Positions 44,223-48,310 of a DNA stretch of 64,000 nucleotides are shown in pieces. Within the stretch, counting starts at the first letter, position 1. Each line of letters starts with the position of its first letter. Source of the stretch: Jatrophihabitans cynanchi (GTDB taxonomy: Bacteria; Actinomycetota; Actinomycetes; Mycobacteriales; Jatrophihabitantaceae); NCBI RefSeq assembly GCF_027247405.1, contig NZ_CP097463.1:2542001-2606000 (forward strand), read 5' to 3'. The notes under the pieces are model-generated. The model worked only from the letters and a program-made list of their open reading frames with translations. It ran no database searches and was not told the DNA's origin. The translations under genes were made by a program, and so were the position numbers.

Positions 44223-44984
44223 ATGAAGACTGCATTCACCCGCCGTCTCGTCGTCGGTGCCGCGATGGTCGCCGTCGCAGTCGCCGCCGCGGGTTCCACC
44301 GCGGCGCTGGCCAGCGAGCAGCCGTCGGCGGACGTCTATCAAGGCTGCCTGAGCCACAATCTCGGCGCGCTGTACCACGTCAGCACCGACGCGAGTCACC
44401 CGCCGCGGTGCCTCAAGCACGACACGCTGATCAGCTGGAACCAGAAGGGGCAACCAGGGCCGGCCGGTGTGCAGGGTCCGAAGGGCGACACCGGTGCCGC
44501 GGGTGCGACCGGTGCCACCGGTGCGACGGGTGCGACGGGTCCCAAGGGTGACGCCGGTCCGATTGGTCCCCAGGGCCCCCCGGGAGACCCCGGCGCCACA
44601 GGGGCAACCGGTGCGACGGGTCCCCAGGGTCCCAAGGGCGACACCGGTCCCAAGGGCGACACCGGCCCGAAGGGTGACACCGGTCCCAAGGGTGACACCG
44701 GCGCGCAAGGGCCGGCCGGGGCGCTCGAGTTGTACTGGCTGGGAACGCAGACGACGGCGACTTCGCCGAACAGCACGACGAAGCTCGCCTGCGACGACGG
44801 CGATCGGGTGTACGGCGGCGGCGTCTGGGGCACCAGCGGCGTGACGGTCAGCGAAAGCGCGCCCAGTGGCGACCTCACCGGCTGGTACGTGAATGTCACC
44901 AACCCGGACTTCCTGAGCACGTCATGGACCTACAACGTCTACGCGCTCTGCGGACCGCCGCACACGTCCCTGCGGATCAAGTGA
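44223..44984 (+). CDS. secreted collagen-like repeat protein
   Basis: 253 residues. Signal peptide ([20 protein letters not shown] then LA-S) followed by a Cys-containing head ([27 protein letters not shown]; Cys42 and Cys63). Thirty uninterrupted G-x-y triplets run from residue 76 to 165, rich in GDT, GAT and GPK. A C-terminal globular part follows ([16 protein letters not shown], then YALCGPPH) with two more Cys. ATG 44223 follows GAGGAG. Bacterial collagens form triple helices and serve in adhesion or surface display. No sortase motif or second membrane anchor is present. It ends just before a strong terminator. Confidence 0.9.
44628..44699 (+). repeat. four tandem 18-bp units inside the collagen-like gene
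   Basis: Four copies of an 18-bp word encoding GPKGDT at 44628-44645, 44646-44663, 44664-44681 and 44682-44699. The copies differ only at wobble bases. Repeat-number variation by slippage is plausible. Confidence 0.85.
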
Positions 44985-45214: not shown

Positions 45215-48200
45215 CTAATTGGGCATGTCGGCGAAGCGGCTGTAGCGCCCCTGGAACGCGACGGCCACCGTGGCGGTCGGTCCGTTGCGGTGCTTGGCCA
45301 AGATGAGGTCTGCCTCGCCGGCGCGCTCGGTCTCCGGCTCGTACAGGTCGGGCCGGTGCACCATGATCACCATGTCGGAGTCCTGCTCGATCGAGTTGTG
45401 CACGACGATGCCGTCGGCGATGAAGTTGTGCTCGCCCGGAACGGTGGCGTCGAACACCTCCTGCTCGCCGAGTTCCTCGATCGCGACGACGCTGTCCCAG
45501 AACACGTCGTTCGTCGCGAGCATGTCCAACTCGGCATCGTCGAGGACGGTGGCAACCCGGGCGAGTCGTGGCCGGCTCGGCGAATGCTTCCCCAGGGTCG
45601 AACCGCAGAACTGAGTCGCCTGCGCCGTGGCGAATTCACGATGCGTCATGCGCCGCTCCTGCAATACGTCACGCACGCGCTTCCACACCTCGACGGGCAC
45701 GGTGTCGACGTTGGTGTTCGGCGTCAGTGCCTCGACCAACGTCAAGGCGCGTGCCGCGAGCTGGCCCCGAGCACCGTGACATCCGATGTCCCGGAGGAAA
45801 ACGAGCTGTTGCTCGGCGCCGACGACGTGCACGTGGTAGCTGTCGCGATCCCCCGCCTTACGTGTCGTCTTGATCCGCGCCGTGATGCCGAAACGGGTGA
45901 GCAGGCGCGTGACGTCGTCGGCTAGTCGCCGGCTCGTCGTCGAGTAATAGATGCGCACCTGCTGGCTCTTGGCGATGTGGACGCAGCCGTCGGTCGCCCA
46001 CAGGTGACGCAGGAACAGCGCGACCTGCGCGTTGGGTAGGCCGAATACCCGGGCAGGCACGAACTTCTCGTGACTGCGGAGGTCGTACACCCCCAGCGAA
46101 TCAAGCCACGCCACGACGGGGTTCCGCCGCCCGTGCGTGACGCGGTACGGGGAGGGCAGCCGGAGCGTGGTGACGCGGGCGGCCGGGTACTCGTCGCGAA
46201 TTGCCGTGATCCCGAAGTGTGTTGCCGCCTCGGTCACCGCCGCCAGATTCGCCTCGTCGATGCCGGCGTAGCGCAACGGCTGCCGACGCAGCATGCAGCC
46301 GTCGCCGATCAAGTGGGCGAGCAACACGATCTGGTGCTCGGGCCAGCGAGCAGTATCGCGCGGCTCCGGCGCGACGCGCGGCACGGCCACTCGCTCACCC
46401 ACCGCCAGTTCGCCCAGCGGGCGCCAGCCGTCGTACGTGTAGAACGGATGGTTGGCGGTGGCCTCCACGCGCCGACCGGAGGCGAGCCTTAGCCGGTAGA
46501 CCTGCTTGACGCCGTTGGAGAACACATGGGTCATCCGGCGGCGGACCATGCGCAGCCGCTCGTCCAACGCCCACACCGGGATGTCGCGCTCGCCGCGCTC
46601 GTACAACTCGCCGAGGGTGACCTCCGCTCCGGTGTCTGCACGCCAGATCCGGGTCGACGCCGGCAGGCACCCTGATTCGCGCAAGTCGGACAGCAGAGGC
46701 TTCTTGTCGGTGCGCTGCTCGGGACCGCGGTTCAGCTGCGACAGCGTCACCACCGGAACGTCCAGCTCCTTGGCCAGCAGCTTCATCGCGCGGGAGAACT
46801 CGCTGACCTCCTGCTGGCGCGACTCGACCCGCTTGCCGGAGGTCATCAGCTGCAGGTAGTCGATCACGATCAACTGGATGTCGTGCCGCTGCCGCAGCCG
46901 GCGCGCCTTCGCGCGGATCTCCATCATGGTCAGGTTGGGGCTGTCGTCGATGAACAGCGGTGCCTCGGCCAGTTCGGACGAGCGGCGCGCCAGCCGAGTC
47001 CAGTCCTGATCGCTCATGTGCCCCGAGCGCATGTTCTGCAGGGCGACGCCGGCCTCCGCGGAGAACATCCGCATCATGATCTCGAGCTTGCCCATCTCCA
47101 GGGAGAAGATGACCGTCGGCTTGCCGTTCTTCACCGCCGCCGACCGCGCGAAATCCAAGGCGAGGGTCGAGTTGTGCGTCGGGATCATCGTCCGGCCGCA
47201 GAGATACATGTGGTCTTCGTTGTCGACCTGAACGCAGCGCACCGGGACGGAGGGGATCGGTCGCAGGTCAGTCACGGACCGCGTCCGCTGGGCGCCGGAC
47301 GCGGTGTCCTGCACGTCGTGTAGCCCGGCCGCAAGGTCCCTGGTGGCGATGACGCCCCCCGCCTCGGCGATGCGCGCCCCAACCGTGACGAGCGCGTTCA
47401 CGTGAACGCGCCACTGGTGCTCGGCGTCCGCAGTGATCACCGAGCCATCGGAGAACTCGACCTCGAAGCACGGTCGGTCGAGCATGACGTCGGTGGCGGC
47501 CACTACACGAGTCGGGCGCCCGTCGGCACCGAGCAGGAAGTCCCCGACCTGCACGGCGCCCATTGTCGTCCAGCCACTGGGCGTCGCAAGCGGCGTGTCC
47601 AGCGCCAGCGCCTTGCCCGAGCCCGGCCGGCCGGCCACCGTGATCATCTGACCGGGGTGCAGCCCGTTGGTGTACTCGTCCAGCTGCTGGAACCCGGTGG
47701 GGATGCCGGTGCCGACGCCGCCGTTCGCGCCGATTCGGTCGATCTCGTCCAGGGTGGGTTGCAGCAGCGTCTCGATGTGGACGAAGTCCTCGCTGGTGCG
47801 CCGCTCGGTGACCTCGTAGATCTCGGCCTGCGCCCGGTCGACCACGTCGTCGACGCTGCCCACCACATCGGATGAGCCGGATGCGGTGTCATAGCCCATC
47901 TGCACGATCCGGGTGCCGGCCGTGACCAGCCGGCGCAGCGTTGCGCGCTCGGCCACGATCTGCGCGTAGTAGCCGGCGTTCGCCGCCGTCGGGACCGTGT
48001 TGACGAGCGTGTGCAGGTAGAGCGCGCCGCCGACCCGGATCAGCTGGCCGCTGCGGGTGAGCTCCTCGGCGACGGTGATCGGGTCGGCCGGCTCGCCGCG
48101 CCCGTACAGATCCAGGATCGCGTCGTAGACCAGCTGGTGCGCCGGCCGGTAGAAGTCGCCCGGACGCACCACCTCGACGACGTCGGCGATCGCGTCCTTG

Positions 48201-48310
48201 CTCATCATCATCGCGCCGAGCACGGATTGTTCCGCCTCGATCGCCTGCGGCGGGGTGCGGTCGTACTCGCCAGGTCCCGACGTGGTCCGCGCCTCGTCAG
48301 CCAGCGTCAT
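45215..48310 (-). CDS. dnaB: replicative DNA helicase DnaB containing two inteins
   Basis: 1031 residues from ATG 48308-48310 (GGAGGG upstream; a longer frame to 48481 is not used). After removing the inteins the extein is 459 residues, normal for DnaB. N-domain opens PPQAIEAEQSVLGAMMMSKD. The P-loop GRPGSGK is at 227-233; STLALDF continues after intein 1. Walker B is IDYLQLMTSGKRVESRQQEVSEF in pieces (LIVIDYLQLM at 480-489), and LRESG-SIEQDSDMVIMVHR is the H4 region. It is the ring helicase that unwinds DNA at the fork. rplI lies upstream after a gap bearing DnaA-like boxes. Confidence 0.97.
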   Translation of the reverse strand: MTLADEARTTSGPGEYDRTPPQAIEAEQSVLGAMMMSKDAIADVVEVVRPGDFYRPAHQLVYDAILDLYGRGEPADPITVAEELTRSGQLIRVGGALYLHTLVNTVPTAANAGYYAQIVAERATLRRLVTAGTRIVQMGYDTASGSSDVVGSVDDVVDRAQAEIYEVTERRTSEDFVHIETLLQPTLDEIDRIGANGGVGTGIPTGFQQLDEYTNGLHPGQMITVAGRPGSGKALALDTPLATPSGWTTMGAVQVGDFLLGADGRPTRVVAATDVMLDRPCFEVEFSDGSVITADAEHQWRVHVNALVTVGARIAEAGGVIATRDLAAGLHDVQDTASGAQRTRSVTDLRPIPSVPVRCVQVDNEDHMYLCGRTMIPTHNSTLALDFARSAAVKNGKPTVIFSLEMGKLEIMMRMFSAEAGVALQNMRSGHMSDQDWTRLARRSSELAEAPLFIDDSPNLTMMEIRAKARRLRQRHDIQLIVIDYLQLMTSGKRVESRQQEVSEFSRAMKLLAKELDVPVVTLSQLNRGPEQRTDKKPLLSDLRESGCLPASTRIWRADTGAEVTLGELYERGERDIPVWALDERLRMVRRRMTHVFSNGVKQVYRLRLASGRRVEATANHPFYTYDGWRPLGELAVGERVAVPRVAPEPRDTARWPEHQIVLLAHLIGDGCMLRRQPLRYAGIDEANLAAVTEAATHFGITAIRDEYPAARVTTLRLPSPYRVTHGRRNPVVAWLDSLGVYDLRSHEKFVPARVFGLPNAQVALFLRHLWATDGCVHIAKSQQVRIYYSTTSRRLADDVTRLLTRFGITARIKTTRKAGDRDSYHVHVVGAEQQLVFLRDIGCHGARGQLAARALTLVEALTPNTNVDTVPVEVWKRVRDVLQERRMTHREFATAQATQFCGSTLGKHSPSRPRLARVATVLDDAELDMLATNDVFWDSVVAIEELGEQEVFDATVPGEHNFIADGIVVHNSIEQDSDMVIMVHRPDLYEPETERAGEADLILAKHRNGPTATVAVAFQGRYSRFADMPN
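45395..46669 (-). other. class 1 intein with LAGLIDADG endonuclease in DnaB (residues 548-972)
   Basis: 425 residues between LRESG and SIEQD, the same site as the Synechocystis DnaB intein. It starts with Cys548 (CLPASTRIWRADTG), has block B GRRVEATANHPFYTYDGW with TxxH at 618-621, and dodecapeptide blocks LAHLIGDG and HLWATDG (the two LAGLIDADG motifs). It ends VPGEHNFIADGIVVHN with His971-Asn972, followed by Ser973. So splicing by Cys1 and Asn and homing by a monomeric LAGLIDADG enzyme are both plausible. Confidence 0.92.
47171..47611 (-). other. class 3 mini-intein in the DnaB P-loop (residues 234-380)
   Basis: 147 residues inserted after Lys233 of the Walker A motif and before Ser381. 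It begins with Ala234 (ALALDTPLATPSGW) instead of Cys or Ser, has no endonuclease, and ends THN at 378-380. Its Trp300 (AEHQW), Cys359 (VRCVQVDNEDHMYLCG) and Thr378 (IPTHN) match the W-C-T signature of class 3 inteins, in which the block F Cys is the first nucleophile. Splicing would join Lys233 to Ser381 and restore the P-loop. Confidence 0.9.

What the first reader, a model, noticed from the sequence alone, without database searches (positions are those of the whole stretch)
47171..47611. Class 3 mini-intein in the P-loop of DnaB
The insert splits GRPGSGK from STLALDF in the Walker A motif. It begins with Ala instead of a nucleophile and has Trp300, Cys359 and Thr378 at the places that define the class 3 W-C-T signature. 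Class 3 inteins use the internal block F Cys as first nucleophile. Since helicase activity needs the P-loop, splicing is a switch for DNA replication: an unspliced DnaB cannot bind ATP. Redox control through the single Cys nucleophile is an attractive idea.
Basis: partly seen in the sequence, partly recalled or inferred. Interest (0 to 1): 0.78.

Follow-up and report, generated by a model that had tools for sequence, protein, structure and literature searches.

The report
Class 3 mini-intein in DnaB helicase
The gene for this actinobacterium's DNA-replication helicase carries a small protein segment that should cut itself out of the enzyme's ATP-binding site; the same arrangement is already published for Mycobacterium smegmatis, so it is a well-supported further example rather than a new kind of thing.

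Summary
Window 47171-47611 (-) encodes a 147-residue insert splitting GRPGSGK from STLALDF in the Walker A motif of DnaB, with Ala1, Trp300, Cys359, Thr378, His-Asn and Ser+1. Thirteen of 20 same-family loci read have an empty site. Nearest solved structures, by sequence and predicted fold, are the class 3 DnaB inteins of M. smegmatis (6BS8) and M. chimaera (6RIX). So it is a class 3 mini-intein, counterpart of M. smegmatis DnaBi1. The insert has three cysteines, not one; Cys281 (intein 48) matches the published disulfide partner of the nucleophile. What I add: Cys48, called 'non-conserved' in that paper, is Cys in 141 of 141 distinct DnaB P-loop class 3 inteins read, 116 of them over 250 residues, so it probably predates endonuclease loss. 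The linker suggests that this family's mini form arose apart from the mycobacterial one. The window alone (1 of 140) has Cys at intein position 138. Splicing and switching were not tested. New member of a known kind.

The parts
45215..48310 (-). dnaB, replicative helicase, 1031 aa (ATG 48310), interrupted by two inteins
   Evidence: Pfam DnaB and DnaB_C; NCBIfam NF005852 and TIGR00665
47612..48310 (-). N-extein, residues 1-233, ending in GRPGSGK (Walker A)
47171..47611 (-). intein 1 (class 3 mini-intein), residues 234-380, 147 aa
47609..47611 (-). Ala234 = intein residue 1, no nucleophile
   Evidence: Ala in 141 of 141 DnaB P-loop inteins
47468..47470 (-). Cys281 = intein Cys48, equivalent of the published disulfide partner
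   Evidence: PMC6195587
47411..47413 (-). Trp300 = intein Trp67, block B W of the WCT triplet
47234..47236 (-). Cys359 = intein Cys126, block F nucleophile (Cys118 in M. smegmatis)
47198..47200 (-). Cys371 = intein Cys138, Cys only here among 140 DnaB P-loop inteins
47177..47179 (-). Thr378 = intein Thr145, block G T of the WCT triplet
47171..47176 (-). His379-Asn380, C-terminal His-Asn of intein 1
47168..47170 (-). Ser381 = Ser+1, also the Walker A serine of mature DnaB
46670..47170 (-). middle extein, residues 381-547, STLALDF...LRESG
45395..46669 (-). intein 2 (class 1 type), residues 548-972, 425 aa, Cys1 ... His-Asn, Ser+1, LAGLIDADG endonuclease
   Evidence: (PF14890, PF14528)
45218..45394 (-). 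C-extein, residues 973-1031

Best explanation
The insert is a class 3 mini-intein, the counterpart of the M. smegmatis DnaBi1 intein at the same P-loop site. It should excise itself: Cys359 attacks the Lys233-Ala234 bond directly, forming a branched thioester; Ser381 takes over the N-extein; Asn380 cyclises and frees the intein; the exteins join as GRPGSGKSTLALDF. Until then the Walker A motif is broken and DnaB should be unable to bind ATP. It has no homing endonuclease and so should not move by homing. Shown here: anatomy, class signature, fold match of a predicted model, empty sites, group of relatives. Inferred from the family: the chemistry. Weaker inference (I give about 0.35): splicing is slowed by oxidants through a Cys281-Cys359 disulfide, and by zinc on Cys359 and Tyr369, as published for M. 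smegmatis. The confidence given is for the class 3 mini-intein, not for the switch.
For: WCT triplet, Ala1, DxxH block B (Asp62, His65), His-Asn end and Ser+1 in register. PDB matches 6rix, 6riy, 6bs8 at E 2.3e-45, 1.5e-44 and 1.4e-43. AF2 model pLDDT 88.5, best Foldseek matches 6bs8, 6rix and 6riy, 53-57% identity. Same-family relatives with an empty site: 13 of 20 loci read. Splicing domain under purifying selection, dN/dS 0.16-0.30 in 5 pairs. One dnaB in the genome, so a non-splicing insert should be lethal (inference). The M. smegmatis counterpart is solved and described as splicing by the class 3 path (PMC6195587). Zinc ligands of the M. smegmatis structure (C118, V119, Y128; PMC7360933 passages) are present as C126, V127, Y136.
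Against: I found nothing in the sequence that speaks against a class 3 intein. No splicing was tested. Pfam and NCBIfam models do not recognise this insert, so the assignment rests on alignment and a predicted structure. Cys48 conservation does not prove redox control: in M. smegmatis every Cys48 substitution tried abolished splicing (PMC6195587), so it may simply be needed for folding or catalysis.
Confidence: 0.94

Rival explanations
1. A constitutive, neutral leftover (still a class 3 mini-intein): it splices fast and always, is no switch, and stays only because precise deletion from an essential motif is rare.
For: No endonuclease; the same family holds empty sites and long forms, so presence is not required. 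Cys48 is equally invariant in 116 of 116 inteins over 250 residues, which argues that it was not acquired as a host sensor after endonuclease loss.
Against: The best-studied counterpart splices slowly and is reversibly inhibited by peroxide and by zinc in its own host (PMC6195587, PMC7360933; passages), and by chlorine species in a reporter (PMC8557812; passages). A shared mini linker in three genera of this family suggests long retention.
Confidence: 0.55
2. A class 1 intein with a decayed first residue, that is, a broken intein.
For: Position 1 is Ala.
Against: Ala1 in 141 of 141 relatives at this site; intact WCT triplet; block F position holds Cys; strong match to solved class 3 inteins; the gene is the only dnaB and is open throughout.
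Confidence: 0.02
3. A host-adapted redox and metal sensor of DNA replication (still a class 3 mini-intein), as proposed for M. smegmatis, perhaps retuned here by a third thiol at intein position 138.
For: Cys48 and the block F Cys are both present, with the zinc ligands; Cys138 is private to this intein among 140.
Against: No functional data for this organism; Cys48 is invariant in the P-loop DnaB inteins read, endonuclease-sized ones included, so it is not evidence of later adaptation; Cys at position 138 is common in class 3-like inteins of other hosts (10 of 24 with block G read) and may be neutral.
Confidence: 0.35

Closest known systems
M. smegmatis DnaBi1 (PDB 6BS8, zinc form 6OWN)
   Same: Same gene, same Walker A site, class 3 WCT, Ala1, Ser+1, no endonuclease, Cys48 and block F Cys; 56-57% identity in Foldseek; followed by a class 1 endonuclease intein in the same gene (PMC6195587)
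   Different: 147 instead of 139 aa; linker only weakly alike (z 3.7, against 18.2 and 6.2 for two relatives of its own family); third Cys at position 138 where 6BS8 has Ala
M. chimaera DnaB1 intein (PDB 6RIX, 6RIY)
   Same: Best sequence match (E 2.3e-45), same class
   Different: Linker not alike (z 1.7); Ala at the position of Cys138
Long P-loop DnaB class 3 inteins of actinobacteria (for example L071, L072, L077 in the same family)
   Same: Same site, same invariant residues; splicing domain of L071 81% identical
   Different: 350-501 aa for those three; LAGLIDADG_3 matches in 27 of 32 long ones scanned, out of 116
Class 3 inteins of phage terminases, helicases and exonucleases
   Same: WCT triplet in 13 of 14 read (the C-part of the other was not found)
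   Different: Other host proteins; about 327-355 aa; position 48 is Cys in 8 of the 14
M. smegmatis DnaBi2 and M. tuberculosis DnaB intein (class 1, site a)
   Same: Counterparts of intein 2 here, by the description in PMC6195587
   Different: Different mechanism and site from intein 1; identity to the window's intein 2 was not measured

Membership tests
Class 3 intein | No nucleophile at position 1 | tested here: met
   Ala234
Class 3 intein | Trp in block B, Cys in block F, Thr in block G (WCT) | tested here: met
   W300, C359, T378 in register with solved class 3 inteins
Class 3 intein | Block B DxxH, C-terminal His-Asn, nucleophile at +1 | tested here: met
   Asp62 and His65 invariant; H379, N380, S381
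Class 3 intein | Hint fold | tested here: met
   Predicted model only; top matches 6bs8, 6rix, 6riy, then gp41-1 and other inteins
Class 3 intein | Splicing starts at the block F Cys through a branched thioester | not testable with these tools
   Needs the precursor
Mini-intein | No homing endonuclease domain | tested here: met
   147 aa; the only Pfam match up to E 10 is DUF3389 at E 0.22
DnaB site b (P-loop) intein, DnaBi1 group | Insertion between Walker A Lys and Ser | tested here: met
   GRPGSGK|insert|STLALDF; empty relatives show the junction
Class 1 intein | Cys, Ser or Thr at position 1 | tested here: not met
   Ala234 for intein 1; intein 2 does have Cys548
Redox-responsive DnaBi1 type | Second cysteine at the place of Cys48 | tested here: met
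   Cys281 present
Redox-responsive DnaBi1 type | Reversible disulfide and inhibition by oxidants | not testable with these tools
   Needs biochemistry

The most novel reading that the evidence does not exclude
The cysteine partner of the redox toggle is not a mycobacterial adaptation but a fixed feature of P-loop DnaB class 3 inteins, laid down while they still carried endonucleases; the oxidant-sensitive pause of replication would then be a built-in property of the whole clade, and the third thiol here (Cys371) would make a three-cysteine active site with a different redox set point.
Probability: 0.2. Interest if true: 0.55.

Novelty: new member of a known kind. Interest (0 to 1): 0.3.

Why it matters
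The case adds little by itself, since M. smegmatis DnaB is the same arrangement and is published. The comparison bears on an open question in the intein field, whether endonuclease-free inteins are kept as environmental sensors. The Cys48 partner of the redox toggle is as fixed as the catalytic residues in long and mini forms alike, which speaks against its having been gained as a sensor after endonuclease loss, while some phage class 3 inteins have Ser, Thr or Val there. That gives natural variants with which to separate 'needed for splicing' from 'needed for sensing'.

Tried and rejected
Considered and rejected: decayed class 1 intein (position 1 is Ala in all 141 relatives read at this site); a second, intact dnaB that would make splicing dispensable (none found; the weak DnaB_C match at G000:C1:2861224 lies in an ORF that I read by eye as RadA from its zinc-finger and P-loop sequence); chance resemblance.

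Led nowhere: Pfam and NCBIfam give no intein call for this insert; the viral-contig scan gave no relative of intein 2; two parsing scripts were replaced (one search stopped with an error; one search used too narrow a pattern and matched 17 of 64 loci). The tree of splicing domains is weak (113 columns, 66 of 117 inner branches unresolved), so the 10 changes between mini and long forms are not robust; starred branches force 3. Distances between the three cysteines were not measured: I had no coordinates. Synonymous divergence is higher in the intein than in the middle extein in 4 of 5 pairs, which could mean horizontal transfer; not followed up. In alignment A2 I cut the last residue of one row (L072) by a slip; A2 was used for the consensus in that call and the endonuclease scan.

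Limits of the conservation count: searches found loci with six peptide patterns, one of which contains Cys48, so those sets lean towards Cys48; the sets are not so seeded (101 of 101 distinct DnaB ones have Cys48). Of 108 genomes with a match, 12 weaker ones (best E 1.6e-11 to 4.9e-7) had no place printed and were not read; further places in genomes with several matches were not all read. One of the 141 (L073) ends at a contig edge, so counts for blocks F and G are out of 140. The 113-column set joins fixed lengths from the two ends without realignment. For phages 14 of 358 matching records were read, picked by me for diversity from a spread listing of 60 rows; several have a one-residue gap just before position 48. 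In the other-host set of 34, ten had no block F match. Of the six without Cys48 (L060 Thr, L065 Ala, L067 Val, L083 Val, L084 Ile, L085 Val), L083-L085 may not be class 3; L067 had no block F match, but one search shows an end with Cys and THN, so it may be.

Full report
What is there. On the minus strand, 45215-48310 encodes a 1031-residue DnaB replicative helicase (ATG at 48310) with two in-frame inserts. Upstream lie genes for L9, SSB and S6, the usual actinobacterial order by recall. Insert 1 is residues 234-380 (47171-47611), insert 2 residues 548-972 (45395-46669). Without them the flanks read GRPGSGK-STLALDF and LRESG-SIEQD.

Insert 1 is a class 3 mini-intein. It has Ala at position 1, Asp62 and His65 in block B, Trp67, Cys126 in block F, Thr145, His146 and Asn147 in block G, and Ser at +1. 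phmmer against the PDB gives three sequences: 6rix (E 2.3e-45), 6riy (E 1.5e-44) and 6bs8/6own (E 1.4e-43), all class 3 DnaB inteins by the titles, the abstract start of PMC7664689 (its text was only searched for terms, none found) and PMC7360933. AlphaFold2 with 33 sequences gave pLDDT 88.5, and Foldseek ranks 6bs8, 6rix and 6riy first, at 53-57% identity. Pfam and NCBIfam do not recognise the insert, so annotation by these libraries would miss it.

The insertion is precise. Of 24 genomes in the window's family among the 61 searched, 20 gave a DnaB locus that I read at this point: 7 are filled (window genome included) and 13 show an uninterrupted GRPGSGKSTLA. Ten further DnaB loci of the same order were read: 2 filled, 8 empty. 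The genome has a single dnaB, the other weak match lying in an ORF that I read as RadA.

Published counterpart. PMC6195587 (outline, passages, section 6 and the first part of the discussion read) describes M. smegmatis DnaB with two inteins: DnaBi1, a class 3 mini-intein at the P-loop, and DnaBi2, a class 1 endonuclease-bearing intein in motif H4. DnaBi1 splicing is reversibly inhibited by oxidants through a Cys48-Cys118 disulfide. PMC7360933 (passages) shows zinc inhibition with zinc bound by Cys118, Val119 and Tyr128. PMC8557812 (passages) reports inhibition by reactive chlorine species and says that the M. leprae intein also has C-48. The window has the same pair: insert 2 starts with Cys548, ends His-Asn before Ser973, matches Intein_splicing and LAGLIDADG_3 and lies at SDLRESG|SIEQD. 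The mini form, the class, the site and the double occupancy are therefore already known.

The insert has three cysteines: intein positions 48, 126 and 138. Position 48 is the published disulfide partner. PMC6195587 calls Cys48 'non-conserved' and outside the splicing blocks. I collected 141 distinct P-loop DnaB class 3 inteins: the window, 101 from whole-genome searches (with regions) and 43, four rows being repeats. Position 1 is Ala, 48 Cys, 65 His and 67 Trp in 141 of 141; block F Cys, Thr145 and Asn147 are present in 140 of 140 with a complete C-part. By length, 17 are at most 160 aa, 7 are 161-250, 116 are over 250 and one is cut by a contig edge; all have Cys48. In 120 sequences under 90% identical, 16 of 113 columns are invariant, Cys48 among them. 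Of 32 of the 116 long ones scanned, 27 match LAGLIDADG_3 and 20 Hom_end. A search for intein, DnaB and Cys48 found two papers (PMC6195587, and PMC8529194, one passage read). In what I read I saw no report of this wide conservation, but subscription papers are not in the library and earlier surveys may hold it.

Outside DnaB the residue varies. Of 34 distinct class 3-like inteins in other proteins, 28 have Cys48 (three of the six exceptions may not be class 3). Of 14 phage inteins read from 358 matching records, 8 have Cys48, 2 Ser, 2 Thr and 2 Val; 13 of the 14 show the whole WCT triplet. If those phage inteins splice, Cys48 is not required by the class 3 mechanism as such, yet it is fixed in the DnaB group, endonuclease-sized forms included. 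The simplest reading is a structural or catalytic dependence in this group (all Cys48 substitutions tried stop splicing in M. smegmatis, PMC6195587), with redox sensitivity as a by-product or later use. This is inference.

What is particular to this copy. Position 138 is Cys only here (1 of 140; otherwise 135 Ala, 4 Val), although Cys is common there in other hosts (10 of 24). In M. smegmatis Tyr128 (Tyr136 here) is a zinc ligand two residues before this position; whether the thiol reaches the active site was not measured. The linker between block B and block F is related to those of two other family members, G001 (z 18.2) and G012 (z 6.2); the next best mini-intein has z 3.3 and the best long ones z 3.8-4.0. 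Against the linkers of the solved inteins it has z 3.7 (6bs8) and 1.7 (6rix), while seven other minis (L121-L127) have 5.6-25.4 against them. So the mini form was probably inherited or shared within this family, apart from the mycobacterial type; the z of 3.7 leaves some doubt. The tree needs 10 mini/long changes, but only 3 are forced by well-supported branches, and it puts the long L071 nearer to the window than either mini relative. dN/dS of the splicing domain is 0.16-0.30 in five pairs, against 0.12-0.20 in the middle extein: purifying selection, as expected where failure to splice would be lethal.

Double occupancy. Among 55 relatives with the middle extein located, 15 have intein 1, 8 have intein 2 and 6 have both (Fisher one-sided p 0.003; built by hand). 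Relatedness is not corrected for, so this is a lead only.

Verdict. The regulatory claim is plausible by homology but untested here. The finding is a new member of a known kind; its modest interest lies in the Cys48 census and in the probably separate origin of the mini form.

Noticed in passing
window 45395-46669 (-): Second intein in the same gene: class 1 type (Cys1, His-Asn, Ser+1) with a LAGLIDADG endonuclease that keeps an acidic residue in both motifs (LIGDG, WATDG; read by eye).
   Followed up: partly
55 relatives with a DnaB locus: Intein 1 and intein 2 occur together more often than independent occurrence would give (6 of 8 intein-2 carriers also have intein 1, against 9 of 47 others); phylogeny not corrected for.
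   Followed up: partly
long P-loop DnaB inteins, alignment A2 (L071, L009 and others): Their consensus holds Cys-x-x-Cys-like pairs between the two LAGLIDADG parts, and one of 32 scanned matches a double zinc ribbon model.
   Followed up: no
L017, Actinophytocola xinjiangensis: A close relative of this class 3 intein (69% over residues 1-83) sits in a different protein, at LGGGK|SFLGGG, which may mean transfer between host genes.
   Followed up: no
window 44223-44984 (+): An ORF with matches, far below cut-off, to collagen-like adhesin models; it overlaps an ORF on the other strand and may be a reading-frame artefact of repetitive GC-rich DNA.
   Followed up: no
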